This document shows, in pieces, positions 1,656-24,051 of a stretch of DNA of 49,466 nt. The DNA lies in assembly GCA_023653055.1 (NCBI GenBank), contig JAMNXR010000019.1, forward strand, positions 1 through 49,466, read 5' to 3'. Source of the DNA: Burkholderiaceae bacterium (GTDB lineage: Bacteria; Pseudomonadota; Gammaproteobacteria; Burkholderiales; Burkholderiaceae_B). Position 1 is the first letter of the stretch; each line of letters begins with the position of its first letter. The notes under the pieces are model-generated. The model was not told the DNA's origin. It saw only the letters and a list, made by a program, of their open reading frames with translations, and ran no database searches. Both the position numbers and the translations under genes were made by a program.

Positions 1656-4600
1656 CTAATTAGTTAATAGCATAGGCGTCAACATTGCAGCGATAGCCTG
1701 GCTTGGTGTTGCTTCCCACATAGCGCTGTGCAAACAATCTACGGTCTTATACGTGACGTCACCCGTGCAATATTGCGACCAGTCGAATAGCGCCGGATTG
1801 TTAGGTACCGGTTCTTGCCCAGCCCTTACAAAGACAATATTTGTTGAACACATTTTTGGAATGTGCTCGGCTGTTAGCTTGCTAGCTCTGATCATGTGAG
1901 CGATCGTTCGTCTAAAAATATCTGGAGACGTACCTTCTGGGATGTGACCATGCGCAGAGATGTATTTAATAAGCTTAAGAATAAATTGATCATTATTAAT
2001 GTTGATTGAATCATCCTTAATGCCCATAGATTCTGCAAAGTTTTCTAGAATACTTTGCGTTTGAGCGGATTCGTCGACAACAGAGTTTTCTATTGCGCGA
2101 GGGTCAGCAACGGAATCAAGCAGCACGAGTAAGTGAACCGATTGACCTGCTGCCTCTAGCTGAGTAGTGATTTGTTGTGCAATCGTGCCACCAAAAGACC
2201 AGCCAAGGAGTTGATAAGGGCCTTGTGCTTGCACTGTTCTAATGGCTTTTATGTAGGCCGTTGCCATGTCACTCACATTAGCGTGCGGCGTTTCATTATC
2301 TTCGAGACCACGCGCCTGTAGTCCCCAAACTGGAACGTCATGTGGCAAAGCATCAGAAAGATTTTTATACACCGTGCTAGATCCACCGCCTGGATGAATA
2401 CAAAATACAGGTGAACGCGAACCTGTTTTTCTAATCGGGAGCAAAGGATCGTAGGAAAGTTGTTTCGCATCCCTTAAGCAGGCTTCCAGAAGTCGGGGCG
2501 TTGGATGATTGAATAACGTTTGCAAATTCATACCAACTTCCAAGTCTAGCCTCAGGCGACTCACCAGTTGCATGGCAAGCAGTGAATGCCCGCCGAGATC
2601 ATAGAAATCATCATCGATGCCAACAGTTTCCGTGCGGGTTAGCTGAGCAAATAGCTGACACAGGTATGCCTCCCGCATTGAGCGCGGTGCAACAAATTTT
2701 CTTTGTAGCAGCGAGGCGTCTACATCCGGTAGCGCTTGCCGATCCAGCTTTCCATTTGCTGTCAAAGGAATACTTGCGATAGTGACAAAATAGCTTGGCA
2801 CCATGTAATCAGGAAGATGTTCACTGAGTTGTTCACGAAGTCTGTTGGCATCAGGGATCTCACGGCCGAGGCTTGGGACACTGTACGCAATCAGTCGCTT
2901 TTCATCATTAAGGTGGCGCATGATAACTGCCACTTGTTTGATTTCTGGTACCTGTTTGAGTATCGCTGCTTCAATTTCACCCAGTTCAATTCTGAATCCT
3001 CTGATCTTGACTTGGTTGTCAGCACGACCTACATATTCAATTTCTCCATCGGCACGGCGATACACTAAATCACCGCTACGGTACATGCGAGAACCAGGGT
3101 GTCCAAAAGGATTCGCAATAAATCTCTCGGCAGATAGACCCGCTCTATTGATGTACCCTCTGGCCAAACATTCGCCTGCGATGTAGAGTTCGGCCACCAC
3201 GCCCTGAGGAACCAACTGTAAAGAAGAATCTAAAATATAAAGCTGTGTATTCCAGATGGGAGTTCCTATTGGAGGAAATTCGTTCCAATCCGAAGCATGA
3301 CGATCAAGCACATAGCTACTCACCACATGGGTTTCTGTTGGTCCATAATGATTGTGTAGTGAAGATTCAGTTTGTCGACTATAAAGTTGGCGTATCTCTG
3401 GAGTAATTTGTAATTGCTCGCCAGCAGTGATGAGCACCTTTGGCCACGCAGATACTTCGCGATGACTATTGGACAGCGCAAGGTTGTTCAGGACGATGTA
3501 TGGTACATGCAAGAGATCGACATGCTGCTTGTCTATGTATTCGAGCATTGCAAAACTATCTTTACGCGCTTGTTCGTCGATGAGAACAAGCGTGGCACCT
3601 CGCGTGAACGTTGCAACGATTTCCTGAGCTGAGACGTCAAAGCCGATAGGTGAATATTGCAAAACTTGTTTGGGGAGGTCGGGATACGTCTCCTGCTGCC
3701 ATAGAGCAAGATTGACCAGTGCGCCTTGCAAGAAGCCCACGCCTTTAGGTAATCCCGTACTGCCCGACGTGTAGATTAAGTAAACGAGATTATCAGCGCG
3801 AAGTGGATGACGACGATCGTCATCGGATATTTTATCGACGGAGTAAGTGTCAGTATTCTTGATGCACTCTGCGTCAGCGACGTCTATGATGGATAAGTGA
3901 GTGGGAAAAGTGTCCTCAAAAATACTCAATAATGTTTCATGTGTTGAGATGAGATGTTTCGCTTGACTATCTTTTAGTATGAACTGCAAGCGAGATGAAG
4001 GTTGGCTCATGTCCATTGGCAGATAGGCGGCTCCCGTCTTGATCACAGCAAGTATGGCAATGACCATTTCTTGTGAACGGTCAAGCATGACTCCAACAAT
4101 ATCTTCAGGACCAATGCCTTGCGCAATCAGGTATCTTGCAAATTGATTGGTCTTAGCGTCAAGTTCTGCATAAGTCAGTGCAAAGTGTCGTCCATCCCGA
4201 ACGGAAGTTAGGGCGATAGATTGCGGACTGTTAGCAGCTTGTCTACTGAATAGGTCTGGTAGAGTCGTAGTTTGATGTGGCGATACATTACCCGCAGACT
4301 GTGAAATGAGTTCAAGACGTTCTTGCTCAGAAATACTAGTGACCATTGCGAGCGGTTGCTCGTAAATATTTGAAAGTGTCTTGATCAAATTTTGTAAGCG
4401 CATCAAAAATTTTTGCGCAAACTGTGAATCTATTTTTGCTGAATCAAAGCCTAAGCGCAGCAAAATTGAATCGCCGGGTACGACAGAAAGCGCGATGGGG
4501 TAATGGGTCCCATCTATATTTTCTGCTCGTACAACCTCAAGATCACCCGTAGATTTTTTTGCGGAATTGTTAGGATAGTTTTCAAATACAAATAAAGCGT

Positions 4601-7600
4601 CAAACAGCAAGCTTGATGGGGTGTTTGTTAGCGCTTGTATTTCAGTCAGAGTGAGGTGTTCATACTCTTCTTGAGTGACCGCTTCAATTTGTTGAGCGCG
4701 TAACCAGTCTGCGAAACCTTGCTCCGCTGAAAGTTGGACATACACCGGAAGCGTATTAATAAAAAGACCAATCGCTCGGTCAATTCCAGGTAATTGACTC
4801 GAACGCCCGTGCCTGACAGTGCCGATCACGACTTCGTTCAAACCGAACAATTGCCCAAGCAGAAATGCGAACATACCTTGAAAGGCGGTTGCTTGGGTGA
4901 TTCGCTGATCACGTGAAAACTGTCTGACTATTTCGCTCGACGCTTGATCCAAATGAATCTGTAACTCTTTCATTCCAGTTTCTGGCTGTGCTGGCGCAGT
5001 AAACATGAGGCGAACAGGCGAGGTGAGTTCGGATAAATAATTTTTCCAATATGATTTAGCCTGATCTTTGTTTTTCTCGGAGAGCCACTTGAGATGATCC
5101 TGCCATGCAAATGGCTTGACGAGCTCAGCGGTGTATCCCTTTTGCTCTGCGTCATAGAGTTGTGCTAATTCTGTACCAAGTTGAGCGCTCGACCACCCAT
5201 CAAGAATTAAGTGATGGTTGCTGATAAGTAGAGCGGTGCTATTTTCGTCTAGTTGACATATTGATAAGCGGAGGAGTGGGCCCGTTTCAAAATCAAAAGC
5301 GTGGTTTAGATCCGCAATGCGTAGCGCTTCGATCGATTCTTCAGGCGATCCCTTAAAGTCAAATATTTCTAGACCAAGACCAGGCGAGGATCTAATCAGT
5401 CCAATGCCAGAGACAACGCCCGCCGGTGCTAGAACCAAGCGCAAAATGGCATGTCTTGCTGTCAACTGCGTCCAAGCGCGTTGCATGCAGGCGATATCAA
5501 GTGTTCCCTTCAGTGTAAGCATTAGCTGTACATGATAGGTATCGCTTTGATTTGCTGCGATAGACATACTTTCGTAGGCTAAGCCTTGCTGAAGCGCTGT
5601 TAGCGGGACTACATCTTCGACGTCCGGAAAGCGTTGCAATAAGGTGTTCAATTGTGTTTGAGTGATCAGACTGGTTTGACCAGGCTGTTGTGGAATCATC
5701 AAACTGAAGTCATGAGGGGTATGACGATTCTCGAGTGGCGAATTTAAGCAATCTCGCGCGACTGCAACGAGTGTTTCTTCAAACAGGCGTGCTAGATTTG
5801 CGATCGACGCTTTGTCGTATGCTTTGTCACAATAAGCGATGTTGAATTTGAAACAACCCGTTTCGTCAAGTACGGAATTAATTTCTAGTAACTGCAAGCG
5901 GCTTCGGTCAAGATCGTCATTGGCAGACGTTAGGGAGTCAGCGGCAAGAGCCCAGCGTTTGTTATCCGAGGGTGTTGAGTCGAATTTACCTAAATAATTA
6001 AAAAGTATCTGCGGTTGGCTAATGTCTTTTGCGTTAAGTTGACTCAGAGGGTCGAGGTGGCGAAGAACGCCATAACCCAGTCCCTTGTCGGGTATGGAGC
6101 GTAGACATTCTTTAATTGTTTGAACAGCTTGGTTTCTGCTCATTGCTGAACTGTCAATGGCCAAGTCTGCAACTGGCAATCGAACGGGGAATGCAGTCGT
6201 AAACCAGCCAACACTGCGGCTCAGATCAACGTCGCCTTCTCTGCCGTGGCCTTCAAGCATCACGACCGGATCGCCCAAGTAGTAACCATAATGTGACTCG
6301 CTCCACTTGCATAGCGCTAAACCCAAGGAGGCAAGGAGCACATCATTGATTGAGCCAAAATATACTGAAGGTGCTTTTAAAAGCTGGATAGTGCTGTTAC
6401 GGTCCAATTCGCCTGTCATCAAATGTGCATGCGCGAGCGTGTTCATTTCTGGCGTGATGGGATAGTCTTGAGGCAGTGGACGTATCGTCTTAAGTTGCGT
6501 CAGCCACAGTGACTCTTCTAAACGCCTCACACTTTGCTCTGCTTGTTTAGTAAGAAGTTGTGACCAACTGAGTAGAGACATTGTTTTAGGGGGTAGGCTG
6601 GTAGGACTTGCCGATGTCAATGTTTCAAGGTCTTCTACCAAAATCCGCAACGACACTGCGTCGACAGCAAAGTGGTGGATTGTCAGAACGAGCATGGCCG
6701 CTTGTTGCTTACGCAATACCCACAGGGCGGCGACGAGCTGACCACGTTCGGGATTTAGCCCATCGCTTAGGTGATTGATGGCATCTTTGAGGCGCTGTTC
6801 ACCTGATTCTGGTGACATTTCACTTAAATCAAGGACCTGTAGCAATGGAGTATTCGCATTCTCCAAGCTATCGATTATTAAGGTCGTGTTTGAAGTCGTT
6901 CGAACAAATTTAAGCCGTAATGCGGCATGATGTTGCACTAATTTCAGGAGTGCTTGTTGAACTGAATCAAACGTTACATGCTGTGGAACACCTAAACAAA
7001 TAGTTTGATTAAACTTATTAAGGGGGCCGCCTGCGCTTAAAAACTCTAAATGAATGGGGAGTCCCTTAAACAAACCCTCTTCTGGCCAGTCTATTTGAGT
7101 AGACTGATTTAAGTCAATGCTGCGTGCGCGTTCTGCAAGCTTTGCGGGTGTTTGTAATTCAAAAATTTCTTTGACAGAGATGATTAATCCAGCAGCACGA
7201 GCACTACTCACTAGACGAATGGACAATATGCTGTCGCCACCTAAATGAAAGAAACTATCGTCGATTCCTACCGCAGAGGTTCCTGTCAACGATGCAAATG
7301 CCTCACAGAAAATAAGTTCGTTTGGCGTTCGCGCGACCTCAAAGTTCGTCTGTGTGACAGACGCGATAGGTAAGGGAAGCTTATTTCGATCGAGTTTTCC
7401 ATTTGGTGTGACAGGGAGTTCAGGTACCGTCACAAAGTGCCCGGGGATCATATGCTCGGGTAGATACTGGCTTAAGGTTTGTTTGATCGTCGCTGCGTCA
7501 AAGATATGCCGCTCTGCAGTGGGTACAAGGTAAGCCACTAAACGCAAATCAGATCCGATAGTCCTTGCGATGACAACGGCATGTGCGAGATGATCAATAT

Positions 7601-10600
7601 GTGTCAAGAGCGCAGTTTCAATTTCACCTAGCTCAATACGAAAGCCGCGAATTTTTACTTGATCGTCGGCGCGTCCCAAGTAAATCAATACGCCATCCTC
7701 ACGGCGTTGCACCAAGTCACCCGTTCGATACATTCGAAGACCTGGTGGACCGAAGGGGCAGGCAATGAAACGTTCGGATGTTAAAGCGCTACGACCTAAG
7801 TATCCTCGAGCAAGTCCATCGCCAGCGATATAAAGCTCACCTACTGTGCCGTCGGATACCGGCTCAAGATAAGGATCAAGTAAATAAAGTTGAGTATTCC
7901 ATATTGGTTTGCCAATGGGTATGACGCCCTCGTGTGAGGTGTTCTCGCTCACTTCATATACGCAGCAGCCTACGACTGTCTCGGTCGGCCCATATTCGTT
8001 AATGAGTCTCGTGTTAGGTGAGTGCTCTCGCCAAAACGAAACCGTCGCTGAGGTGAGTTGTTCACCTCCAATCACATAGGAATTCGTTTGATGGTTAAGC
8101 GAAGTCGCAGGTAACAAATGACGTAAGGCATCTAAATGAACAGGAGTCAGTTTGACTAACGTAAAATTATTCTGCTGTTGAAGTTTTTCAGCTAAGTCTT
8201 CAATTTCATTTTGTTGATCAATGAAGAGAATCGCCTTGCCAGCAGTTAACGGTAACCATAGGCTCGTAATCGTGGCATCAAACGCAATCGAGGTGTTGAT
8301 AGGCGCACCTTTCCCGGCTTTGACGTCGTACATGTCTGAAGCCCACAAGATGTAATTCAATAGACCGCTATGCGAAAGTGCTACACCTTTTGGTCTGCCA
8401 GTACTGCCTGAGGTATAAATTAAGTAAGCAAGATTGGCAGAAAGAATAGGCGCTAGACGATCTTTATTTTTAATTGGCGCGATCGAACAACCATCGATCT
8501 TATGCAACGTTGTATTGTCATCAAGTGCTACCACTCGGGGCAGAACAGGTCCGTGATCAATAATAAGAGAGTTGGAAATAGCTGACGTACTCACTACAAG
8601 TTTTGATTGACTGTCAGTTAACAAGTAAACGACACGTTCAGCGGGATAATTAATATCTATAGGCAAATAGGCTGCGCCGGCGCGCATAATGCCAACCAAA
8701 GAAACCAGTAACTCTGGTGTACGTGCAAGGAGAACACCTACGATATCATCTGGGCCTACGCCTTGGTCGATAAGATATCGGGCAAATTGATTGGCACGCT
8801 GATCAAGTTCACTATAGGTCATGCACAGTGCTTGATTATTTAGTTCGTAATTGAGTGCAATCGCCTGAGGTGTTGCAACAACATGCGCATCAATCAGAGG
8901 CAAAATAGATTCAATTTCTAATGGATGATGTTGTACGAGGCCAATGCTAGCCTCAGAAAGCGCTAGCCGCTTGTCCGATGACACTAAGGGTATTTGTGCC
9001 AAAGCTAATGTGTTGATGTCTGGCAAAGAGGTAATGAGAGCGATCAGCTGTTCTAGAATTTCTGCTGCGCTTGTCTCATTTAATCGGGCTTGGTCAAATC
9101 CTAATCGCAATGTCAGCGTATCGCCGGTCAGTGCAGATAATCCAATTGGGTAATGATTGCCGTCTTCACTTTCTGCATCTGTGAGTTCAATTTGCCCGAT
9201 TGTGGTAGCGGTCTTGCTGACTGGATAGTTTTCAAACACAAACATCGCTTCGAATAAGGGCTCCCCCGTCAGGCCTGTTATCTTTTGAATTTCCCGCAGT
9301 CCAATATGTCCATGTACATTCTGCTCTGCCATCGCAACTTGTTGCTCTTGCAACCATGTGGTCAGGGTTTGAGCAGGATCGATGGGAATGTAAATGGGGA
9401 GCGTGTTGATGAACAAGCCAACGCCTCTGTCGATATCTGATAGCGAACTCGTTCTACCGCTCCGCACGCTGCCGATCACGATTTCATTAAGATTGCCGCG
9501 ACGCGCAAGTACGAGTGCGTACAGACCTTGCAAAATAGATGCCTGAGTTAAGCCTTGTTCTTTGGCAAAGCGCTCAAGTGTTGCCGTTGCTAGGCCTGAA
9601 AGTGGTGACTCCAAATTTTTCATGCCCTGAGTGGGCGTGTGGGGGGGAGGCAAGTCAAGCCTGCTTGCTGTCGTGAGGTTTCGGAGGTAGTGTTGCCAGT
9701 AGTGGGTTGCCTGCGCTACATTTTGTTCCTGCAGCCACTGCACATGAGATTTCCAAAGAAATGGCTTGTCGAGATTTGGCGCAACGCCTGTACTCGCGCC
9801 TTGGTACAGTTGTGCGAGTTCGTTGGTGACGATAGGCAAAGACCAACCATCTAAAATCATGTGATGATTTGAAATTAAAATCGCAAATTCATTATCACCA
9901 AGCTCAGTGACATAAAAGCGAATGAGCGGTCCTTGTTCAAGATTAAATGGTTGAGCGAAGTCAAGCGCTTTAAGTGCCTTGGCACGCTGTTTGTTAGTCC
10001 CAGTGAGTTCAATCACCTGAAAATCAATGGCAGATGCATTCAAGATGACGCCATAGCCCGGGGGCATAGGTGCTGCACACACCACTAATCGAAGCGTTTG
10101 ATAACGTTTGACGACTTGTTGCCATGCTTGACGCATCGCTTTTATATCGAGCCGACCCCTGAATGTCAGTAACAGATGTACGTGATACGGATCATGTGCG
10201 CCACTTGGCAAGGCAAACGTTTCAAACGCCAATCCTTGTTGCAGTGGTGTTAGAGGCACGATATCGTCAAAATCCGGGTATGCATCTGCAACCGCGTTCA
10301 GAGTCTTTTGATCAATGCTATGAAGAGGTGACAAACTCTTGTGAAGTGAATCGAAATCTGAAAGTGTCCGACGATAAACAAGCGGTGACTCAAGGCAATG
10401 TTGGCTGACTTCGACCAGATAACGTTTAAACAAATGGGCGAGATCTGCGATGTCGGTTTGATGATGCGCCAAGTTGCAGTATGAAACGGCAATGTCGAGC
10501 TGCCCAGCAGGATTGATCGCGGTATTTACATCAAGTAGATGCATTCTCGATCTATCAGGTGACTCCTTTGCTGCAATGAGTCCATTTTCTGCCATTTGCC

Positions 10601-13600
10601 ATTGATGGCTATTGGTCTTTGTTTGTTCAAAGCGTCCAAGATGATTAAATCCAATTTGAGCGGAGCATTCTTTTAGGTGAGCGAGTTCGCTGCCTGTATC
10701 TAAAAACTTCAAGATTCCAAAACCCAATCCCTTGTCGGGCACTGCACGTAATGTTTCTTTCACGCGTTGTATCGCGATTCCCAGATCTTCGTTGGACGAT
10801 TGACGCAGATCACTGATCCTGATTTTGACAGGGAACACGGTTGTGAACCACCCGACAGTGTGGGTTAAATCAACCCCCATTTCACGTCCGTGCCCTTCAA
10901 TGTCAACGACGGGGTCATTTAGGTCGCAACGGTAGTTTGTCTCCGCCCAATGTCTGAGCGCAAAGCCCAGCGCAACAAGAAATAGATCGTTAATGCCGCC
11001 GTTGTAGCTTGATGAAGCCGCGACTAGGTTTTTAGTTTGTTGTTCGTCCAGTTGGCACCTAAAGTGCTCAGCAGCCGCCAAGGTATTTAAGTCATCGTGA
11101 AAGCCATCTCTGACAGGTAATAGTGTTATTTGCTTGAGTTGTTGAAGCCAAAACAAATCTTCACTCCGCCGCAAGCCCTCTTGCCCTTGTAAGGCTAGCG
11201 TCTCTGCCCATTCGCGGAAAGATACCGTAGCGGGTGCAAGCTCTTTTGGCTCTGCCTGAGTGAGTGTATTAATGTCGTCAATGATGATGCGCCACGAAAC
11301 ACCGTCCACCGCATAGTGATGCACGACAAGTGCAAGTTGATGCGAGCCATCGTGACAGGTAATCCAAAGGCCAACCATGACCCCGCCCGTTTCATTTGGT
11401 GCAAGATAATCACTGAGGTCAACAAATGTATCAATCAATTTTTCACGAGCGAGCAACGGATCCATGCCCGTTAGATCCAACTCCAAGATGACCAGTTCAG
11501 GCATTGCACTGACCGGATCAATGATGAGTTGATGGGTATTTCCAGTATCGATACATCTCAATCGAAGGGCGCCATGACTTGCTCTAAGCTTGTTGAGCGC
11601 AGACTTGGTCGCTGCCAAACTGACGTGTGTTGGTGCATTCAAAAGTACAGCTTGGTTAAATGTTTTGAATGATCCTGCTAGATTCCAAAATTGATGAAAT
11701 ACCGGCAGCGCAGGCAATGGACCGTCTTTTACACCAATTGTTTTGGTTTTGGTCTCTTCTATTTTTTGCGCAATTGCCGCGAGGCCTTCTGGTGTCTGGT
11801 GTGTAAAAACATCTTGAACAGATAAAGATAAGCCCTTTGCTCGTGCAAGACTGACAAGTCTTATCACTGAGATACTATCACCGCCTAGCGAAAAGAAACT
11901 GTCGGTAATACTGACGTTGTTTTGATTGGTTAACAAGCAAAAAATATCACATAGGATTTTTTCTTCGGGCGTATTTGCTGCGACATTTATTGAATCATTT
12001 TGATTGCGTTGAGGTGCGGGCAGAGCGCGTTTGTCAAGCTTGCCATTTGGTGTGAACGGTAGTGCTGACAGCGTCATCAAAAAGCGTGGCACCATATATT
12101 CTGGTAGTTGTGCCGACAGGTTTTTCTGGTAAGCCTCTAAGTCGACATCATCGATTTCGATGTCTGCTCTGGGTACTAAATAAGCGACAAGTTTTTGGTC
12201 TCCATCTAAATTTAGTGCAATGACCGCAACTTGTGCGATGTCATCAGTAAGCTTGAGTAGCGCAGATTCAATTTCTCCAAGTTCGATGCGATAGCCATGG
12301 ATTTTGACTTGATCATCGACTCTGCCCATAAACTCTATTGCGTTGTCTTCTCTACGCCTGGCAATGTCACCAGTTCGGTACATCCGCTGACCTGAAGTGC
12401 TGAAAGGACAAGCAATAAAGCGTTCTGCCGTCAATGCTGATCGGCCAATATAGCCACGGGCTAAGCCTGAACCTGCGATGTATAGCTCACCCAACATGCC
12501 TGGATCGACAGGCTCAAGTGCGCTGTCTAATATGAAGGCTTGCATATTAAGAAGTGGATGACCAATCGAAACAGGGCCTGAATTGGCTGTTCCATCCACA
12601 TCTGGATCTAGTGCATCGCTGATTGTTGCGCAAACGGTATTTTCTGTCGGACCATACGCGTTAAACATTTTTCTGTTGCGCGCAAACTTAGAAATAATTT
12701 CCGGCGAGCAAGCCTCGCCAGCCACGACTAAGGTATTCAGTGTTGACAAGACGTTTATATCAAGCGCCGCAACTAAGGCGGGCGGCAACGTAGCGTGTGT
12801 CACATCAAACAGTTGAAGATTCTCTGATAATGCATTTGCCACTTCGACACGTGAAGTATCGGGGATTGCCAGTGCAGCCCCGGAACCAAACGCTAAAAGC
12901 ATCTCCCAAACACTTGCATCGAATGCCTGAGAAGCAAATTGCAATACTCTGTCGGTTTGGTTGAGGTTAAAAACTTTCTTTTGTGCTTGAACTAAATTAC
13001 AAGCTGCTGCATGAGAAATCCCAACACCTTTTGGTTGTCCAGTAGATCCTGAGGTGTAAATGACGTAAGCCAGTCCCTCTGAGTAAACCTTAACTTGCTG
13101 ATTCTCCTTGCTGAGGTTTTCTTCGGACAACATTGATACTTGAATATTGACGATATCATCCTCAAAATCGAGCAAAGCGGGTAATTCAGTCGTGACGGCT
13201 AAGCTGAGACTTTCGTAGATTGATTCAGTGGATATGATTCTTTTGACACCACTGTCTTTAATAATGAATTCCAAACGTGCTGCGGGATAGTCTGGATCCA
13301 GCGGTAGGTACGCAGCACCGGTTTTAAGAGTGGCCAGTATCGACTCGATCAGTAACAATGATCGAGGCAACATCACTGCAACGATTTCGCCTGGCCCGAT
13401 ATTCAGAGTGCGGAGATGTCGTGCCATCTGGTTAACACTAGCGTTGAGTTGTTTGTAGCTAATGTGTTCAACTGAATTTCTTTCTTTCAGTAATAAAGCT
13501 GACTGATTTGTATACTGAACGACGGTTTGTTCGAACATCTGAACAAGATCAAGTTGATCTGTAGATGTTTGGTTTGCTTGGCTCGCAGATTGTTCGATTA

Positions 13601-16600
13601 ATAGCCTACGCTCAGTTTCGTCTCGTAAGCGAATGGCGCCCAAGGCGGTATCACCCAAGTTCGGTAACGCATCAATGAGAAACAACAGCTTATTCATCAG
13701 GCGCTGTGCTGTTGACGCATCTAAGCGCGCGGTATCAAAGCTTAAGCGTAGACGTAAAGGCTGGCCTGGAAATACGCCTAGTGCCAGAGGGTAGGTTGTT
13801 CCATCGTGTCCAAAGCTTTCCGCGACGGTAAGATCACCGAGCGCAATTGCGGATGAATTGATAGGGAAATTTTCAAATACGAAGAGTGCTTCAAAGATAG
13901 AGGCGCCAGAGAATCCTGCGGCTGTTTGTATTTCTGCTAACCCAATATGTGCGTGTTGATCTTGTTCAGATTGGGACGCTTGTAGCCGAATAAGCCATTG
14001 AGAAAGTGTTATACCTGACGGAAGGTCTAAAAATAGTGGCAGCGTATCGATGAAAAGACCAACAGCTTGATCGATTCCGTTGGCAGGATTGATGCGCCCA
14101 TTGTGTACGCTACCCACGACGATGTGACTAAGCCTGCATACTCTGCCTAAGACCAACGCATAGAGACCCAGAAGGATACTGGCCTGAGTGACGCTATACG
14201 TACGTCCAAATTGATTCAGTTTTTCGTTCAGTTTTGCATCAATCTGACCATTGATTTCACCCGTTGAATTAACATTTTCAGCAGGTTGAGAAAATTGCAG
14301 ACGACTAGGTTCAATCAGTTCACTAAGATGATTTTTCCAGTAATGACGTGATGAGGCCTTATCTTGTAGTGAAAGCCACTGAAGATGATCCTGCCAAGCT
14401 AAAGGTCGCGCCAAGGACTCTGATAAGTTCCGTACGTCTCGATCATAAAAATGTGCGAGTTCACGCAATAGAATCTGGTTAGACCATCCGTCAAGAATGA
14501 GGTGATGCTGGGCAATTAGCACCACATATTTTTGCTCACTGAGTTGCCCCAGACGCATACGCACTAGAGGTGTTTTTTCAAGATCAAAGGGCAACTGTAA
14601 GTCTGATTGTTGAATCTGAATCAGACGTTGTTGATCATCACCCCTCAACTCAATAAATTGGGCATCAATAAAAGTATCTTGATGAATGATGCCAATATTC
14701 GGAAATTCGTCTGCTGGCGCAAGCGTCAATCGTAAGACTTCATGGCGTTTGACAAGACGGCCCCATGCACGCTTCATGGCGGGTATGTCTAATGCGCCCT
14801 CTAGAACCAATACGATCTGTATATGGTTTGGATCGCTAGCGTTATGAGCAAGTCTGATGCTTTCGAAAGCCAAGCCTCGCTGTGCAGCGGTGAGTGGGAC
14901 AATACTTTGCAGATCTGTAGTCTGCTCAACGAGTCGATCCAGCGATGACTGGGTCACTAAGGCTGCAAGTTCTGGTTTTGCTGTGATTAGCGGAAAGTCA
15001 ACAGGAGTGAAGCGATTGAAGAAGGGCGCATGCAGGCAGTGATCAGAGACTAATTGCAGCGCTGTTTCAAAACAGCGCGCAAGCGCGAGGATAGATTCGG
15101 GTTGATATGCTTGATCGCAGAAATTGATGTCAAACTGGAAGCAACCAGTCTGATCTATGATTGCATTAATCTCTAATAGGTGAAGACGTTTTCGGTTGGG
15201 ATCGTCCGCTGCGCTGTTGGAATATTCATTTAGTAGTTGCCAAGTTGTGCTGTGGTGATCATTTTTCTCAAATTTACCTAGATAATTAAAGACGACCTGT
15301 GGTGTGGCCGGCGGGCTTTGTGAGAGTGCACTATTAGGATCAAGGTGACGCAAAATCCCATATCCCAGACCTTTATCGGGTAGCCCGCGTAATCTATCTT
15401 TAATTCGCCGAAGCGCCATGCCTGCACTGTTCAAATCGGTTGGGTCGATGTCTCTGACTTCGAGCTTGACAGGAAACATACTGGTGAGCCAACCAACAGT
15501 GCGCGTGAGATCAACATCCGTCTCCCTGCCGTGTCCCTCTAGGGTGATGACAAAATCGCTTGTCTGCTGCTGAAATTGATCGGTACTCCACTGACGAAAC
15601 GATAAGCCAAGGGCGGCTAACAGTACTTCGTTGATTTCGTTTTGATACGTCGCCTGTGCGCGAAATATTGCTTCGGTTTGCGGAGTCGTTAACCGCCCCG
15701 AGATGGTCTTGACTTGCTTGTTTGTGTTGTCTTTTTCGTCAACGATTTGATCTTGCGGTAGTAGGTCAGTGTCAGCAAATTGTGACAACCAAAGGGTCTC
15801 TTCACCTCGTCGCTGTCCTAGTTGTCCCGCTTGAGCGAGCATGTTTGCCCAGGCAACCAGGGGCATCGTCCGCTCAGGCAGAGGTATTGTGATGTCATTG
15901 GCTAATGCCTTTAGATCGTCAAACAATATCCGCCAAGACACGCCATCTACAACAAAATGATGCAAAGTCAGAATCAATAGAGACGGAAGCTCTTTGCGCA
16001 CTACCCAAAGTGCCTTCACCATACCGCCTGGTCGGTTTGGCGAGAGCTCTGTGCTCATGCGATCGATTGCAGAGCGGATCATGTTTGTATATTGGGTTGG
16101 ATCGTCTTGCGCCAAGTCCAAAACTTGTATGCGTGGCATCTGTGTAGACACGGCTGAATCAACGATAAACCTTGTTTTAAGACCCTGGCCTTCTGTGCGT
16201 AAGCGTAAGGCACTGTGATGCTGAACTAAGATTTTAAGTATTTCACCTGCTACAAACTGATCAATATGTTCAGGCGCTTGCAAACACACAGTTTGATTAA
16301 ATTGATTGAGCGTGTCATTGACACTTAGGTATTCTAAATAGATTGGTAAGGGGGAAACTTCTCCGACTTCAATCCAGCTCTCGGTGGTCACTGCGGGCGA
16401 ATTTAGAATGACGGTTGAGAGCGCTTCCGCGTTTTGATACTTAAATATGTCACGAACACTGATGACATAGCCTGCAGCTTTGACTCGACTCACTAAACGA
16501 ATAGCAGAAATACTATCGCCGCCTAGTGTAAAAAATCCATCGTCAATTCCAACTTGTTCGACGCCGGTAATCTCGCTGAAAAGTGTGCACAACAGCGCTT

Positions 16601-19600
16601 CTGCATGATTACGCGCGGAGCGATAGTTCAGGACGTCTGTTTGTGCCACAGGTTCTGGTAAAGCACGTCTGTCGAGCTTGCCATTGGCGCTTAGGGGCAG
16701 GGTATCGATCGCCACAAAGTAGGCCGGTACCATGTACTCGGGTAAGACACTCAGCAAGTTGGTCCGTAATTCGGTGGGCGTAGCGTGTTTATCATCTTTT
16801 CTTGAAACCAGATATGCAACTAAGCGCTGATCCCCATTAATTTTTCGAGCGATCACGGCGACCTGAGCAAGGTGGTCATTTTGACTCAGTATGGCAGCCT
16901 CGATTTCTCCGAGTTCAATTCGATAGCCCCGAATTTTCACCTGGTCATCGATGCGTCCTAGGTATTCGATCGCGCCATCTGTTCGGCGTCTGGCGAGATC
17001 GCCTGTGCGGTACATTCGCGCACCCGGTGTTCCAAAAGGACACGCAATGAATCGTTGCGCCGTTAAGTCACCTCGCCCCAGATAGCCTCGGGCGAGCCCA
17101 ATTCCTGCGATATAGAGTTCACCGGCCAACCCGTGGGGCAGCGGTTCAAGCGCATCGTCAAGAATGTACAGACCAATGTTCCAGATTGGATAACCAATAG
17201 GCGGGGTATTGACGCCATCTTTGGGATCGCACGGCCAGACAGAGACGTCAATAGCGGCCTCAGTCGGTCCATAGAGATTCCATAGTTTTGTGTTGGGCAG
17301 ACGCGTAAATGTTTGCGACTGTACTGCACCACTTAAGGCTTCTCCGCTCGTGACGATTTGAGTAATCGCGCTGCAGTCGCCTGCTTCGAGAGACTCAAGG
17401 AATACCGCCAACATCGACGGAACGAAATGCAATACGGTGACGCGTTGCTGCTCAATGATTCCCTTTAGATAGGCCGGATCTTTCTGGCCATCAGGACGAG
17501 CGATAACGAGTGCAGCGCCTGTCATCAGAGGTAAAAACCACTCCCAGACTGCCACATCAAAACCGATAGCTGTTTTTTGTAGCACGCGATCTTGACGGGT
17601 CAACTGCATAGTGTCTTGCATCCAGAGCAGTCGGTTCACGACAGCTTGATGCGTATTGCCAGCGCCTTTCGGTACTCCTGTGGATCCGGAGGTGTAGATG
17701 AGATAGGCGAGGTGATCTGAAACAAGGGGATGTAATCGCTCATCCGAAGCAATGCAACTGGTTGGTAAGGATTCAATGAACGTCGCCTCTGAGGCCTGGT
17801 CGAGCTCAATGACTTTTAGACGATCTTGATCTACGAGGCTTTGAACTACTGTAGGTTCGGTACTAAGCTGCTCAGTTGAATTGACAGTGGATAACAGTAA
17901 TTGACGACGCGCTTTTGAGGTAATCAGCATGCCTGACTTGCTATCTGTCAACATGAAATGCAGACGGGCAAGAGGAAGTTCTGGATCTAGCGGAAGATAA
18001 GCAGCACCCGCCTTAAGTACGGCGAGCATTGCGACAATCATCTGTGCCGAACGGTCGAGCAGCACCGCTACAATTTGGTCTGGCCCTACGCCTTGGGAAA
18101 TAAGATGCCGAGCGAGTTGGTTGGATTGCGCATCAATTTGCGCGTAAGTTAGGCTTGAATGTATCTGCCCATTTTCGAAAATCAGTGCAGTAGCGTCTGG
18201 CGTTCGTAGCACCTGAACATTAAATAGCGCGACCAGATCGGAAGGCTCCGCTGATAGGTCTACGCGCGGTCCCAGCGAAGAAGTGGCGACCGAAAATTTT
18301 TCATGAGAATCAAGAATGCTTAATTCAATTAATGGACGGTCCGGAGCATTGGCGATGGACTTTGCCAAGCTGATAAAACTATGCGCCCAAGTTTCAACAT
18401 TTTTTTCGTCAAACAGATCAGCGTCGTACTCCATGACACACGATAGGTCTCCGTTTGATAACGGCTCCAGCACAAATGCCAAGTCAACTTTGGTTGTTGC
18501 TTGACCAACTACAATTTTCTCGGTTTGAAGGCCTGAAAATTCAAATGTTGCCTCGCCCTGATTCTGGAACGATATCAATGTTTGAAATATTGGTGTGTGA
18601 TCAAGTGATCTCGCAACACCCAACTCTTCGACTAACAATTCAAATGGCAAGTCTTGATCGCTAATCGCCCCTTCAAGTTGCTTTTTTGATTGTTGAATTA
18701 ATTCACGCGCACTGATCCCTTGATCAAGACATAGTGGAATAGCCAATGTATTAAGGAAGAAGCCGACAATGTGTTCGGTCTCGCTTCGCGTACGTCCAGC
18801 AATCGGAGAGCCGATCACGATATGAGATTGTCCAGCAATTCGACTCAGTGTTGCACCGTAGGTTGCTAGTAAGGACGCAAACAAGGTTGTTTGAGATTCT
18901 TTGGCAAGGGCTGTCAGTTTTTGAACAGTCGTTGACCCGAGGATCACTGACACGTAGCCCGCCTTGTGCTCTCTATCGGGATGTCTGGGGTGATCGACGG
19001 GGAGCGTCAATTGTTCAGGAATGTCGACTAATCGCTCTTTTGCACGCTTAAGTTTGTCTGCTAATTTCTTTTTTAGCGAGGCTTCTTGCCAATGCGCCCA
19101 ATCACTGTATTGAATCGGCAATACTTCTAAGTTAGGTGATACATTTTCTTTAAATGCCGAATACAACAGACCCAGTTCACGACCAATAATATTCCATGAT
19201 GCACCATCACCAGCGTGGTGGTGCATAGTGAGTAATAAAACATGTTCATCAGGTTTGATATTTAGCAGCAGCGCTCGGAACGGAATCTCTGCACCTAGAT
19301 TAAATGCGGTGCTTGCGGCAGTCCGTATTAATCTTTCAACGATTTCGGCGCACTGCTCAGGATTATTGTTATAGGTTGAACTGAGATCTTGTACAGCGAG
19401 GACGCCTGCTTGAATAGGTGAGTCTACCAGTACGCCAGTTGGTTGCCCTTTATCATTTTCAACAATTAAGGTACGCAAAGCTTCATGTCGCTCGACGAGA
19501 TAGTTCAATGCGCGAGAAAGCGCATCGTTATCGATTAGACCGTATATGCGCAGCGCCATCGGCATGTTGTATGTGGCGGCATTCTGCTCGATCCTGTCGA

Positions 19601-19649
19601 GAGTCCATAATCTACGCTGACCATAGGACAGCTGAATTTTAGTAGTCAA
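1656..19649 (-). CDS. Tetramodular nonribosomal peptide synthetase (C-A-T-E x3, C-A-T-TE)
   Basis: A 5997-residue cytoplasmic assembly line. Approximate domains are: C1 1-445 (HHHAGDG at 143-149), A1 470-990, T1 (Ser1046), E1 1090-1530 (HH at 1230), C2 1575-2010, A2 2030-2540, T2 about 2590, E2 2630-3070, C3 3125-3560, A3 3575-4085, T3 about 4138, E3 4175-4620, C4 4680-5105, A4 5125-5635, T4 about 5687, TE 5725-5997 (GWSFGG Ser5818, His5974). Ten-residue specificity codes aligned by eye to GrsA are DVWHVSLIDK (Ser), DAWTVAAVCK (Phe), DATKVGEVGK (Asn) and DVQHIAHVVK (Pro). T1 to T3 carry LGGDS, typical before epimerases, and T4 carries LGGHS. C2 to C4 look DCL-type (HHLILDGWS or HHMILDGWS). 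The predicted chain is D-Ser-D-Phe-D-Asn-L-Pro, N-capped if C1 is active. E3 has a degenerate core (see findings). The start is TTG at 19649, with GGAG 8 nt upstream. No PPTase, MbtH or exporter gene is nearby. Confidence 0.96.
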
Positions 19650-19651
19650 GT

Positions 19652-19831
19652 TTATATCTCCGTCATACCACCAGCAAAACGGATAAGCGTGGGCTCATCG
19701 TTGTTGCCGTCGATGTATTCGAGGTAGGGTGCTAAGGACTCTGGGGTGCTGAAATTGTGTCGTCTTGAAATTTGCTGGTGAGACCAAACATTACGTTGTG
19801 CCCCAGTGAGGGGTAGTAGGTCAGTTTTCAA
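19652..19831 (-). pseudogene. Remnant of an NRPS condensation domain (59 codons)
   Basis: This ORF starts at TTG (19829-19831) and ends with TAA at 19652-19654, two bases before the NRPS start codon. Its product begins MKTDLLPLTGAQRNVW and continues SHQQISRR, then [18 protein letters not shown], and ends RFAGGMTEI. The LPLTGAQRNVW segment matches the first core motif of condensation domains (L-P-L-T-x-A-Q-x-x-x-W), and Y-L-E-x-x-G-x-x-D-x-x-x-L fits the strand and helix that follow in EntF-like C domains. A complete C domain is about 450 residues, so nearly all of it is missing, including HHxxxDG. The GGAG serving the NRPS lies inside its last codons, so the two frames are probably translationally coupled. 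The upstream ribosome site is weak. It is most simply the stump of a deleted upstream NRPS gene. A functional leader peptide is the alternative. Confidence 0.7.
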
Positions 19832-20329
19832 AATAATCTTTACAAAACTAAGGAAAATGGATTGAGCATTTTTAAAATCAAATTAAATCAATATTTAAAT
19901 GATCATTGACTGCAAAGAAGAATTGAGAATCTTGCCGAATAGGTAAAACAAACGGTCCCACTGAAAAGAAAAAGGCATGGCTAATCCGTAGTCATGCCCC
20001 TAGCAAGCGCGTTGATAATGCTTTAAATAAAAGCACCAAGAACTTAAAATTTTGCTTAGCGCAGAATTCCAAGTAAAGCTTAATTCATTAAAAAAATGAT
20101 ATAGAAATCTCCTAAATTTTATTCTGCTTTACATGCTCAAAATTGCAGTTGCGAGGGTTTGCGAGTTTATTATTGGACGCAGTTGTGACGTATTGGCAAA
20201 TGAATTTTTTGATATGAATCTTTATGACGCTCTGTATGCTTTATCGTTGATATATATAGGAAAAACTGACTTTCATGCCCATTTTCAGAACTACTTTGGT
20301 GTTCAATATTCGTATTCAAAGGTGTAAAC
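19832..20329. other. AT-rich divergent intergenic region between NRPS and GST genes
   Basis: About 500 bases without a convincing gene. It must carry the NRPS promoter (minus) and the GST promoter (plus). A minus-strand terminator sits at 19963-19999. An open plus-strand frame at 20133-20327 encodes 64 residues without a ribosome site or a recognisable family. On the minus strand, a frame of about 30 codons with no usable start codon runs directly into the terminator hairpin. A weak minus-strand promoter-like pair (TTGCAG, 16 nt, TATTGA) lies near 19890-19915. Confidence 0.5.
19963..19999 (-). terminator. Rho-independent terminator upstream of the NRPS gene
   Basis: On the minus strand GGCATG-A-CTA, a five-base loop, and TAG-C-CATGCC form a nine-pair stem with one A.C mismatch, followed by TTTTTCTTTT. 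The hairpin with its U-tract points toward the NRPS gene, about 310 bases before its start. It either ends an unannotated small minus-strand transcript or acts as an attenuator in the NRPS leader. Confidence 0.6.
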
Positions 20330-20938
20330 ATGCTGCTCTATGACATGACTGTAGGAATGAACCCTCGCCGCGTGCGTATTTTTTTGGCGGAAAAGGGACT
20401 TACGATCCCGACCCGTCAGGTCGATGGCCTCAAACGTGAAAACCTCACCCCAGAATTCCGCGCGATTAATTCTCTAGGGAAAGTGCCGGTTCTTGAACTG
20501 GATGACGGCACGTTGCTGACCGAGTCTGTCGCCATCTGTCGTTACCTTGAGGCGCTCCATCCAGAAAAACCACTGTTTGGTCGCACCAATCTAGAAAAAG
20601 CCAAAGTGGATATGTGGACCCGACGGATCGAGTTCGAAATCGTTGCGCCGATTGTCAGCCACTTTCAACATACGGGCGAATATTGGATTGGACGCCTACA
20701 ACAAGAACCCGTCTGTGGCGAGCTTGCGCGTAACCGGGCATTTGATGCATTTGCTTGGCTTGATCGTGAGCTCGCCGGTCGCGAATTTATCGCCGCGGAT
20801 CACTACACGATTGCCGATATTGTTGCCCAGTGCGGCTTTTTAGTCGGCAAAGCGACCGGTACACGTATCCCGCCTGAACTCAAAGAGCTCAACCGTTGGT
20901 ATACCGCTGTGGTCGCACGTCCGACTGCGAGGGCATAA
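20330..20938 (+). CDS. Glutathione S-transferase family protein
   Basis: A 202-residue cytoplasmic protein with the two-domain GST plan. An N-terminal thioredoxin-like half (about 1-80) includes the glutathione-site segment GKVPVLELDDGTLLTES, where the cis-Pro (VP) and the E-S pair bind the glutathione backbone. An all-helical C-terminal half includes the FIAADHYTIADI N-cap region that is highly conserved in GSTs. A good ribosome site (AGGTG, six bases before ATG) supports the start. The following SDR gene begins two bases after the stop codon, so the pair is probably an operon acting on a shared small-molecule substrate. The substrate is unknown. Confidence 0.9.
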   Translation: MLLYDMTVGMNPRRVRIFLAEKGLTIPTRQVDGLKRENLTPEFRAINSLGKVPVLELDDGTLLTESVAICRYLEALHPEKPLFGRTNLEKAKVDMWTRRIEFEIVAPIVSHFQHTGEYWIGRLQQEPVCGELARNRAFDAFAWLDRELAGREFIAADHYTIADIVAQCGFLVGKATGTRIPPELKELNRWYTAVVARPTARA

Positions 20939-20940
20939 CA

Positions 20941-21690
20941 ATGGACACTTCGACTGCAGTCGCAACGAAACAAAAGGTTTGCTTGATCGTAGGAGCGGGC
21001 GATGCAACGGGGAGTGCCATTGCAAAACGCTTTGCGCAAGCAGGCTTCACCGTCTGTGTGACGCGTCGCACACCCGATGCCAACGCAGCACTGGTGCAAA
21101 GTATCCAAGCTGCAGGGGGTCGTGCATTGGCATATCAACTCGATGCACGCCGCGAAGATGAGGTCATCGCACTCTTTAAAAAAATTGAAAGCGAAGTAGG
21201 GTCTCTGGAGGTCGTGGTCTTTAATGTGGGTGGAAACGTGCGCTTTCCGTTGCTAGAAATGACAGCAGAAAAATATTTCAAAACCTGGGAAATGTGTGCG
21301 ATGGCCGGTTTCTTGGTCGGTCGTGAAGCCGCACGTGTGTTGTTACCTAAAGGACGCGGCACGATTTTGTTTACAGGTGCGACAGCGAGCTTAAGGGGCG
21401 GGGTAGGTTTCAGTGCTTTTGCAGGTGGTAAGGCGGCTTTGCGTGCGTTAGCGCAAAGCATGGCGCGAGAGTTTGGTCCACAGGGCTTGCACATTGCCCA
21501 TGTCGTGGTAGATGGTGTGATTGACTCAGAGCGTGTTCGCAACACACAACCAGAGCGTGTTGCGGCCTTGGGGCCTGAGGGTTTGCTCGAACCAGACAGT
21601 ATTGCTCGTGCCTATCTCTGGCTGCATGAACAAACCCCTGATGCTTGGACTTTTGAGTTGGATCTGCGACCAGGGGTTGAGAAGTGGTAG
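20941..21690 (+). CDS. SDR family oxidoreductase with atypical active site
   Basis: A 249-residue Rossmann-fold short-chain dehydrogenase/reductase. The nucleotide-binding glycine motif is VGAGDATGSAIA (residues 17-28), and the NxGG counterpart of NNAG is at 95-98. The catalytic YxxxK is replaced by F-A-G-G-K (Phe160, Lys164), and the usual upstream catalytic Ser is not obvious (TGATAS at 145-150). Members of the same SDR branch with F at this position are known, so this is probably a subfamily trait, but classical hydride-transfer chemistry is uncertain. The start was placed at ATG 20941, not further upstream, because GAGGG precedes it by about eight bases and the longer frame would overlap the GST gene. 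It is likely cotranscribed with the GST. Confidence 0.87.
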   Translation: MDTSTAVATKQKVCLIVGAGDATGSAIAKRFAQAGFTVCVTRRTPDANAALVQSIQAAGGRALAYQLDARREDEVIALFKKIESEVGSLEVVVFNVGGNVRFPLLEMTAEKYFKTWEMCAMAGFLVGREAARVLLPKGRGTILFTGATASLRGGVGFSAFAGGKAALRALAQSMAREFGPQGLHIAHVVVDGVIDSERVRNTQPERVAALGPEGLLEPDSIARAYLWLHEQTPDAWTFELDLRPGVEKW

Positions 21691-21715: not shown

Positions 21716-23719
21716 TTATTCCTTCAATGAATCAGTGATTTCCTTGGCCTGATGGTAGCCCCCAATGCGCTTGATATAGTTCAGTAAGTCCACGAAAAAA
21801 GGTTTGAAACTGAGCGTAGAGACGTCACCGACAAGTAACAACTTGCTACGAGCACGGGTCATGCCAACGTTCATGCGACGGATGTCGGAGAGGAAACCGA
21901 TTTCGCCATAGGGGTTACTCCGCGTCAATGAAATCGCAATGATATCGCGCTCCTGACCCTGAAACGAATCGACGGTGCCCACGCTCAGCCTCCGTCGCAG
22001 GAGTAGATCATTGAGCACGTCGTTTTCCTCGACGGCATCCATCAAATAGTTAATTTGAGCGCGATAGGGTGCAATCACGCCAATCGTGAGTGGTTTGTGT
22101 TCGTGTTCAGCTTGGTTGTAGGGCGCAAGGAGTTCAGTGAGACGCACGAGCAGTAAGTTCGCCTCTTCGGGGTTTGCCGTTGAGCGACTTTCGGGAAGTG
22201 TCACTTCAAGAAAGTCGCAACCGGCAGTATCGAGAAACTCCACGGGTAGATCGGGTGCGAATCGAGGATCATACGCTTCCAAGCCGGCGTGACGGACACT
22301 TTGGTGCGCGACCAATTGGCCTTTGTAGAACTTCTCTGAACTAAAACCCATAATTTGCTCGTGCATGCGGTACTGCACAGTCAGCATGCGAGCGGTATCA
22401 GGCTGGCGTTTGATACATTTTTCGAAAAGTGTTTCGCGCAGGCCTTCGCGGGCAGCTTGCTCGCTTTTCACTGTAGGCGGTAGTTGGTGGTGATCACCTG
22501 TCAGAATAATCCGCTGGCCCTTAGCAATCGGAATCCAACAGCCCGGCTCCAAGGCTTGCGCGGCTTCGTCGATAAAGACGGTTTCAAAGCTCAGGTGTCG
22601 AATGTTGCGGTTGCTGGCCCCTACGAGCGTGCAGGTGACGATTTGCACCGATTCGATCACGTCCTCGGTCATCTTGGTCTCTAAGTCGTCGGCGGCTTGA
22701 AACAGCATTCTCGCGTCATCCTTCAACAACTGGCGTTGCTGCTGCTCCTCGTAGCCAAAGCGCCGGGTGCGCTGGTTAGCGGTTTCACGATACTGTTCTG
22801 CGGTTTGACGCATCGCACGCATCTTGCTATAGCTGGCATGCGCCATCAAGCCGGCATCAAGCGTGTGCTGAAGCAGCAGATCTGACACGCGGCTTGGGTT
22901 ACCTAGCCGGATGACGTTGACACCGCGTTCCGCTAACTTTTCGGTGAGCAGGTCTACGGCCGTATTTGAGGGTGCGCACACCAACACACGTCGTTCGCGA
23001 CGAATGGTTTCTAGGATGGCATGTACCAACGTTGTCGTTTTTCCCGTGCCGGGCGGCCCATGGATGATGGCAACGTCTTGAGCAGTAAGCACATGGCGTA
23101 AAGCGGTGAGCTGCGAGTCGTTGAGCAGGTTGGGGTACAAAAGGTCGTCGGCCTTGTGCGCGCGAAAGCGAGCCTGTCGAGCGCCCAACAGGACGTCGCG
23201 TAGATGGGCCAACCGGTTTGCATATGCGCCCATGACATCACTGAGGGCATTGTTCATTTCGCGGTAACTGACCTCATCAAAGGTGAGGTCAATGCCCAGC
23301 GTGCCTCTATCATAGACCCAGTCGGGCAGCTCATCTTTGGTCGTGGTCAGCTGTAACGTATTGCGCCGTACGCTCGTAATGACGCCGCTAAGCGTAAGCC
23401 GTTCGGATACCGAGTGGGCAGGTGCATCAAGGAATAGTGACGCATTCTTACCTTCTTGAAACAAGTGAAGTTCCTGCCGTCTAGCTGGGCGCTCTATCTC
23501 CAATACCACTTTTCCACCAAAGCCAATTTCTTCCTTGGTGATGGTGATGGGGTACCAGGTGAGGCCGCGCTTGCGACGCTCCTTGATACTGGCACTGGTA
23601 TTTTTGAGTTTGAATTGAGCTTGGTCTTCCCTTTGCTCAAGTTGCATCAGTGCACGCACGTGACGTAATTCATTTTCAACAGTGCGAGGGTCGGTGGGGA
23701 TCGCGTCGATATTAGCCAA
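21716..23719 (-). CDS. Superfamily 1 helicase, UPF1/IGHMBP2-like
   Basis: A 667-residue ATP-dependent nucleic-acid helicase. Motifs in order are GPPGTGKTT (Walker A, about 221), FIDEAAQALEP (motif II, DEAA, about 381), GDHHQLPPTV (motif III), QYRMHEQIM (motif IV region), GTVDSFQGQERD (motif V) and RRMNVGMTRARSKL (motif VI). The DEAA box and the N-terminal beta-barrel-like region before Walker A place it in the SF1B UPF1-like group, which unwinds 5' to 3' on RNA or DNA in characterised members. The frame opens at TTG 23719, 11 nt after the nucleotidyltransferase stop and without a clear ribosome site, so translation may be coupled or start further in (an ATG lies 24 codons inside). It follows the HEPN/MNT pair on the same strand. 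Confidence 0.9.
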   Translation of the reverse strand: MANIDAIPTDPRTVENELRHVRALMQLEQREDQAQFKLKNTSASIKERRKRGLTWYPITITKEEIGFGGKVVLEIERPARRQELHLFQEGKNASLFLDAPAHSVSERLTLSGVITSVRRNTLQLTTTKDELPDWVYDRGTLGIDLTFDEVSYREMNNALSDVMGAYANRLAHLRDVLLGARQARFRAHKADDLLYPNLLNDSQLTALRHVLTAQDVAIIHGPPGTGKTTTLVHAILETIRRERRVLVCAPSNTAVDLLTEKLAERGVNVIRLGNPSRVSDLLLQHTLDAGLMAHASYSKMRAMRQTAEQYRETANQRTRRFGYEEQQQRQLLKDDARMLFQAADDLETKMTEDVIESVQIVTCTLVGASNRNIRHLSFETVFIDEAAQALEPGCWIPIAKGQRIILTGDHHQLPPTVKSEQAAREGLRETLFEKCIKRQPDTARMLTVQYRMHEQIMGFSSEKFYKGQLVAHQSVRHAGLEAYDPRFAPDLPVEFLDTAGCDFLEVTLPESRSTANPEEANLLLVRLTELLAPYNQAEHEHKPLTIGVIAPYRAQINYLMDAVEENDVLNDLLLRRRLSVGTVDSFQGQERDIIAISLTRSNPYGEIGFLSDIRRMNVGMTRARSKLLLVGDVSTLSFKPFFVDLLNYIKRIGGYHQAKEITDSLKE

Positions 23720-24045: not shown

Positions 24046-24051
24046 CTAAAG

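What the first reader, a model, noticed from the sequence alone, without database searches (positions are those of the whole stretch)
19652..19831. Amputated condensation domain immediately upstream of the giant NRPS
A 59-codon frame reads LPLTGAQRNVW and then a Y-L-E-x-x-G-x-x-D-E-P-x-L-I-R stretch, the start of an EntF-like condensation domain. It then stops 2 nt before the NRPS start codon. This suggests an upstream NRPS gene was removed by an internal deletion, leaving its 5' tip and a short tail (GGMTEI-stop) that now carries the ribosome site for the surviving NRPS. The assembly line may therefore make a shortened peptide compared with relatives, or be orphaned.
Basis: partly seen in the sequence, partly recalled or inferred. 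Interest (0 to 1): 0.75.

Follow-up and report, generated by a model that had tools for sequence, protein, structure and literature searches.

The report
Stub of a deleted peptide-synthetase gene
A 59-codon reading frame looks like what remains of a large gene that, in relatives, starts a bacterial peptide assembly line; nearly all of that gene is gone, yet its last bases still abut the surviving half and probably hold that half's ribosome-binding site.

Summary
The frame is real: minus strand, 19831-19652, ending 2 nt before the TTG start of a 5,997-codon NRPS (here B, 19649-1656). In 8 of 8 relatives where sequence upstream of the B start can be read (7 same-genus genomes, 1 other MAG), a larger NRPS gene A lies upstream, adjoining B in 7. 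A is complete in 5 (open frames of 3,270-3,336 codons, three modules) and cut by contig ends in 3. The frame joins A's first ~21 codons to its last ~33; about 3,190 codons (~9.6 kb, judged from G101) are missing, in frame. Profiles from relatives score the halves 34.3 and 25.1 bits; the best of 20,000 shuffles reach 9.9 and 11.7. B keeps its catalytic motifs, but its first C domain groups with internal C domains, while the lost one groups with chain-starting ones. B is thus probably a headless line: silent, or making four residues instead of seven. Ordinary in kind, unusually clean in form. Reads over the junction were not available.

The parts
19652..19831 (-). 59-codon remnant frame of NRPS gene A (TTG start, TAA stop)
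   Evidence: alignments; profile scores
19769..19831 (-). 5' tip of A: residues 1-21, start of a first C domain (LPLTGAQRNVWSHQQI)
   Evidence: 34.3 bits over residues 5-21
19754..19768 (-). junction zone, residues 22-26 (SRRHN), assignable to neither side; deletion point
   Evidence: no word of 16 nt or more from the frame recurs in the window; of an 80-nt junction stretch the longest word shared with 4 relatives' loci is 10 nt
19652..19753 (-). 3' tail of A: last 33 codons (end of the last PCP and C-terminal tail) and stop
   Evidence: 25.1 bits over residues 27-54
19658..19661 (-). GGAG, probable Shine-Dalgarno of NRPS B, 8 nt before its TTG, inside the remnant
   Evidence: read from the sequence; unpaired in the predicted fold of 126 nt
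1656..19649 (-). NRPS B, 5,997 aa: C-A-T-E three times, then C-A-T-TE
   Evidence: E domains told from C domains by order and tree
18297..19640 (-). first C domain of B, groups with internal C domains, now without an upstream donor
   Evidence: tree
1689..2411 (-). terminal thioesterase of B
   Evidence: PF00975, residues 2749-2989 of the stretch translated
19682..19699 (-). terminator-like hairpin inside the remnant (7 pairs, 3 G-C); 1 found, 0.5 expected in shuffles
   Evidence: weak, may be chance
19832..20329 (.). intergenic stretch between the remnant and the divergent GST gene; no convincing match to stretches upstream of A in relatives (best E 0.29)

Best explanation
The frame is the remnant of NRPS gene A, a three-module gene that in relatives lies upstream of B. 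An internal, in-frame deletion removed about 3,190 of about 3,245 codons, from just inside A's first C domain to the end of its third PCP. Because A's start, its last ~33 codons and its stop survive, ribosomes could still translate the stub and stop 2 nt before B's TTG, and B keeps the GGAG that lies in A's last codons, so B can still be translated. B itself is intact, but it has lost the module that starts the chain and the carrier that feeds its first C domain. It should therefore be silent, or at most make the last four residues of a former heptapeptide. Shown: the anatomy, the relatives' A, the intact motifs, the grouping of the C domains. Inferred: a single event, that the stub and B are translated, and the effect on the product.
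For: A upstream of B in 8 of 8 readable loci. Complete A frames: G012 3,281, G021 3,272, G028 3,291, G026 3,336 codons, G101 3,270, each with three A domains. Contig-cut A: G008, G001, G003. Ends match: alignment; 34.3 and 25.1 bits against best shuffle scores of 9.9 and 11.7. A-B adjacency: 3-nt gap in G008, G001, G003; overlap in G012, G021, G028, G026 (read). Own genome: C domains only on C3 (B), C26 and C14, so no second A in the bin. B has 7 HHxxxD, 4 YTSGSTG, 4 NGKLD, 4 PCP serine motifs and a TE GWSFGG. Tree of 40 C/E rows: B-C1 groups with A-C2, A-C3 and B-C1 of relatives (13 rows, 100/99); first C domains form their own clade (8 rows, 100/100).
Against: The nearest B-C1 found is 61% identical, so this lineage's own A was not seen and the breakpoint cannot be placed to the base. 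The genome is a draft (30 contigs, 95% complete): read support over the junction is unknown and a full A on an unbinned contig is possible. In G101 A's tail is 6 residues longer and a dioxygenase gene lies between A and B. No promoter on the minus strand upstream of the stub was found (2 promoter-like sites in the region, 2.0 expected), a weak terminator-like hairpin lies in the stub, and the upstream DNA does not match that of relatives. The stub's own ribosome site is weak (read). An in-frame join has a 1-in-3 chance anyway. In G008 the A start (C129) and A end (C130) lie on different contigs, so they are one gene by inference.
Confidence: 0.87

Rival explanations
1. Assembly error: A is present in the cell, but the assembler or a strain mix joined its two ends in this draft genome.
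For: NRPS genes break assemblies: A is cut by contig ends in 3 of 8 relatives, and the NRPS frames on G008:C129 and C130 run off their contigs in the same A-domain sequence. The window genome is a draft.
Against: A repeat collapse would fuse like with like; here a C-domain start joins a PCP end, and no word of 16 nt or more from the frame recurs in the window (the rest of the genome was not scanned for such words). Own-genome searches find no spare A modules except on C26 and C14, which look like a PKS-NRPS line.
Confidence: 0.08
2. The stub is kept by selection as a translated leader that couples or meters translation of B.
For: The frame is open, in frame, and ends 2 nt before B; a GGAG for B lies inside it. 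A and B adjoin or overlap in 7 of 8 relatives.
Against: Only one genome has the stub, so selection cannot be measured; weak start context; GGAG unpaired in the predicted fold. A 59-codon frame can stay open by chance after a recent deletion.
Confidence: 0.2
3. A short coding gene unrelated to NRPS that resembles one by chance.
For: Pfam gives no family for the 59-mer at E<=10.
Against: Both halves score far above the shuffles against the relatives' gene ends, in the right order, strand and place.
Confidence: 0.01
4. B with the stub moved away from its old cluster, or came in separately, and A was lost in that rearrangement rather than in a deletion of its own (compatible with the best explanation).
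For: Own contig C29 is largely collinear with G021:C33 and keeps relatives of the transporter, ParA-like, metallo-hydrolase and dioxygenase genes of that cluster, with no C domain on it and no A or B match below E 0.12 in its first 40 of 70.8 kb. In relatives the window's flanking genes have other neighbours: GST-SDR in 6 of 7 loci read (the 7th, G015, has only 293 nt on that side), the NMT1-like gene in 4 of 5 loci read (in G001 the contig ends inside the gene).
Against: Both ends of A remain beside B in their old order, so an internal deletion is needed in any case; distance and order of C3 and C29 in the chromosome are unknown.
Confidence: 0.35

Closest known systems
Nodularin versus microcystin synthetase (deletion of two modules of mcyA and mcyB)
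   Same: NRPS modules lost by deletion, with a smaller peptide (passages of PMC8097286, and PMC12184294).
   Different: There (recalled) the deletion leaves a fused working synthetase; here a three-module gene is cut down to a stub and nothing is fused to B.
mcyA strains that lack the N-methyltransferase segment
   Same: Natural deletion inside an NRPS gene (figure legend seen as a passage of PMC8097286).
   Different: One domain lost and a product still made; here the first C domain and three modules are lost.
Gene remnants and NRPS reduction in Xenorhabdus poinarii
   Same: Leftover pieces of genes found by tblastn against relatives; fewer NRPS/PKS modules than in kin (passages of PMC4079199).
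   Different: Here the remnant is an open frame that still ends at the next gene's ribosome site.
In-frame knock-out designs that keep a gene's start and last codons (recalled, no call)
   Same: Same geometry: start and tail kept, middle removed in frame, downstream gene intact.
   Different: Natural; the kept tail is about 33 codons.

Membership tests
Condensation domain PF00668 (the 59-residue product) | significant Pfam match | tested here: not met
   0 families at E<=10
Condensation domain PF00668 (the 59-residue product) | HHxxxDG active site | tested here: not met
   absent from the 59 residues; profile match ends at residue 21
Remnant of NRPS gene A by internal deletion | first residues match the N-terminus of a longer gene at the same place in relatives | tested here: met
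   34.3 bits, residues 5-21; 74% over residues 5-23 to G008:C129
Remnant of NRPS gene A by internal deletion | last residues match the C-terminus of that gene | tested here: met
   25.1 bits, residues 27-54; 58, 58 and 52% to G003, G001, G008 over residues 25-58
Remnant of NRPS gene A by internal deletion | relatives carry the longer gene upstream of B | tested here: met
   8 of 8 readable loci, adjoining B in 7
Remnant of NRPS gene A by internal deletion | reads span the junction | not testable with these tools
   no reads held
Multimodular NRPS (gene B) | C, A and T core motifs and a terminal TE | tested here: met
   the Pfam library scan covered window 13656-19649 and 1656-10655, not 10656-13655
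NRPS that starts chains itself (gene B) | first C domain of the chain-starting group, or no C domain at the N-terminus | tested here: not met
   B-C1 falls with internal C domains (13 rows, 100/99), not with the first C domains; the groups are named by position, no typed reference domains were included
Translational coupling of stub to B | B translation depends on translation of the stub | not testable with these tools
   needs a reporter; adjacency and GGAG only suggest it

The most novel reading that the evidence does not exclude
A natural clean excision has turned a two-gene heptapeptide line into a one-gene tetrapeptide line: B now starts chains on its own despite a first C domain of the internal kind, and the stub has been recruited as the leader frame that sets B's translation.
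Probability: 0.15. Interest if true: 0.6.

Novelty: new member of a known kind. Interest (0 to 1): 0.4.

Why it matters
It gives a natural case of NRPS shortening by loss of a whole starting subunit, with both ends of the lost gene still readable and the downstream 18-kb gene intact. It would be a ready test of whether an NRPS that begins with an internal-type C domain can start chains by itself. For annotation it is a warning: read alone, this NRPS would pass for a complete four-module line, whereas in relatives its counterpart is the second half of a seven-module one.

Tried and rejected
Rejected: that the second half of the frame is C domain; its alignment to the early C-domain strand is by chance, the PCP-end match is the real one. 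Rejected: that A moved elsewhere in the held genome (only C26/C14; C26's first module is 46% to G101 A and 45% to B). Not informative: relaxed selection on B-C1. In C1 the window has 47 lineage-only differences and G101 33, with G021 as the third sequence; summed over the 16 domain stretches they are 721 and 579, so the window's B runs somewhat faster throughout, while its C1 tip branch in the tree (0.30) is no longer than that of G101 (0.32). Led nowhere: promoter/terminator scan, match of upstream DNA to relatives, plasmid collection (no match), micro-homology at the junction (parent sequence not seen). Papers: 'Sheuella' (3 papers, listing only); module plus in-frame deletion (1 paper, listing only); translational coupling with NRPS (0 papers); listings only, from which passages of three papers were read. 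Adenylation codes: the script uses rough offsets, so its strings serve only to compare loci; the residues that I would read from them (Ser, Phe, Asn, Pro-like) are recalled, not tested. Not done: the tree was not rebuilt without the long-branched row that the tool flagged.

Full report
WHAT IS THERE. On the minus strand, 19831 to 19652, lies a 59-codon frame with a TTG start and a TAA stop; two bases later, at 19649, the TTG start of a 5,997-codon NRPS follows. I call that NRPS B.

WHERE IT COMES FROM. The window is a whole contig (C3) of a 2.84-Mb draft genome of 30 contigs, 95% complete. A named record of the same length and match position as relative G008:C130 is a MAG called Sheuella sp. 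(Alcaligenaceae). The genome is therefore probably of or near that genus; it is not named directly by any search.

THE RELATIVES. G017 matches at 60%, but its contig begins inside the domain, so its upstream side cannot be read. An eighth locus, G101 (DUBF01000008.1, deposited as a Rhodospirillales MAG, 59%), came from the named-genome scan. In 8 of these 8 a larger NRPS gene, A, lies upstream of B. It is complete in G012, G021, G028, G026 (open frames of 3,281, 3,272, 3,291 and 3,336 codons) and G101 (3,270), and cut by the contig end in G008, G001 and G003. In 7 of the 8, A ends at B's start: with a 3-nt gap in G008, G001 and G003, by overlap of A's last codons with B's ATG in G012, G021, G028 and G026 (read). 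In G101 a dioxygenase-like gene lies between, and A's tail is 6 residues longer.

THE MATCH. A's C-terminus in G003 reads ...LPLRTLFEFTTPESLAPHLESLEDDDEPMLIRGFGRITEN-stop; the window frame's second half reads [37 protein letters not shown]. This is the end of a PCP and the gene tail. The frame's first 21 residues match the start of a first C domain (G008:C129 has LYPLTGAQRNVWFHQKI). A profile of 7 such N-termini (one of them from the own-genome C26 NRPS) scores the frame 34.3 bits over residues 5-21; a profile of 8 A C-termini scores it 25.1 bits over residues 27-54. Of 20,000 shuffles of the same residues, 13,030 and 15,881 received a score, the best being 9.9 and 11.7. Pfam itself finds nothing in the 59 residues. 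Residues 22-26 (19768-19754) belong to neither side with certainty. So the frame is A with its middle gone: about 54 codons remain of roughly 3,245 (G101 A counted from its likely Met).

WHICH C DOMAIN WAS LOST. A tree of 40 C and E rows cut from the window, G101, G021, G012, G028, G026, G008 and the own-genome C26 NRPS separates E domains (9 rows, 98/98), C domains that follow E (9, 100/99), first C domains of A with those of G008:C129 and C26 (8, 100/100) and A-C2, A-C3 and B-C1 together (13, 100/99). Two rows are poor: a spurious second cut of G026 A-C1, counted among the 8, and a long-branched G021 row outside all four groups, which the tool flagged and which I did not remove. The window's B-C1 is in the last group. 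The groups are named by position; no domains of known type were included. So the stub's 5' tip is of the chain-starting kind and B's own first C domain of the internal kind. That internal C domains hinder chain starts is recalled from the NRPS literature and was not looked up.

STATE OF B. B has the order C-A-T-E three times, then C-A-T-TE; G101 B has the same number and order of C and E matches in a 6,046-codon frame. The motifs sought are present: 7 HHxxxD, 4 YTSGSTG, 4 NGKLD, 4 PCP serine motifs, 1 TE motif. B's A-domain strings equal those of G101 B in two domains and differ by one letter in the other two (rough offsets). B-C1 is the best conserved C domain against G101 (59%; the others 47, 52 and 39%). 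I saw no sign that B has decayed, although it carries more lineage-only differences than G101's B (721 to 579, summed).

WHY THE SHAPE MATTERS. The codons ACG GAG ATA TAA at the end of the stub hold GGAG, 8 nt before B's TTG. A deletion past A's end would have removed this site; one out of frame would have changed where ribosomes on the stub stop. As it is, both are kept, the geometry of a non-polar in-frame knock-out. Against a need for the stub: the predicted fold leaves the GGAG unpaired (z -1.71), and an in-frame join has a 1-in-3 chance. A weak terminator-like hairpin lies inside the stub (19699-19682; 1 found, 0.5 expected) and promoter-like sites are no more than chance (2 found, 2.0 expected).

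THE REST OF THE CLUSTER. In the same genome contig C29 is largely collinear with G021:C33, the contig that carries A and B in G021. It keeps relatives of that cluster's ABC transporter, ParA-like, metallo-hydrolase and dioxygenase genes, the dioxygenase pair and an MgtC-like gene standing in other places than in G021, and a gene of the PPTase family; gene names here other than PPTase are my reading, not a family search. C29 has no C domain, and no A or B match below E 0.12 in its first 40 of 70.8 kb. B sits instead between an NMT1-like gene (334-1620) and a GST-SDR pair (20330-21690). Of 14 other genomes with both GST and SDR matches I read 7 loci: in 6 the side where the window has B holds other genes, in the 7th (G015) only 293 nt are left on that side. 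Of the NMT1-like gene's relatives I read 5 loci: in 4 the B-facing side holds other genes, in G001 the contig ends inside the gene. So the cluster seems to have been broken up in this lineage as well as shortened. C26 and C14 hold what look like two parts of a separate PKS-NRPS line.

HOW IT LIKELY WORKS NOW. Most likely B, if made, has nothing to extend: it lacks the starting module and the donor carrier, and no replacement for A was found in the held genome. If B can start by itself, the product would be the last four residues of the former seven. I put orphaning ahead of shortening, without a measurement.

WHAT IS NEW. Module loss in NRPS evolution is well known (nodularin, mcyA deletions; passages). 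What is unusual is how clean the stub is and that the starting subunit is the part lost. I rate it a new member of a known kind.

LIMITS. No reads, no close strain, no transcript data. An unbinned A cannot be excluded. The breakpoint is known to about 15 nt only.

Noticed in passing
G000:C29 12619-31998 (L057, L058): The window's own genome keeps relatives of the sister A-B cluster's accessory genes on another contig, largely collinear with G021:C33, with A and B absent there.
   Followed up: partly
G000:C26 78000-86816 and G000:C14 1-3114 (L038, L039): What looks like a PKS-NRPS line runs off the end of C26; C14 begins inside a C domain frame and goes on to an A domain. The two may be one line broken at a contig end.
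   Followed up: partly
window 23731-24462: Neighbouring genes of the nucleotidyltransferase (PF18765) and nucleotidyltransferase substrate-binding (PF08780) families, the make-up of a HEPN-MNT pair (recalled), beside an AAA_11/AAA_12 protein (21716-23719).
   Followed up: no
L002 (G008:C130) and L028 (G008:C129): NRPS frames on both contigs run off their contig ends in the same A-domain sequence, as expected when nearly identical adenylation domains break an assembly.
   Followed up: no
L034-L037 (G012, G021, G028, G026): A's stop and B's ATG overlap in one short shared stretch (ATGACAACTAA in G012 and G021), while the window, G008, G001 and G003 have a TTG start 2-3 nt after the stop.
   Followed up: partly
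window 24546-25322: 258-codon frame with no Pfam family at E<=0.001.
   Followed up: no
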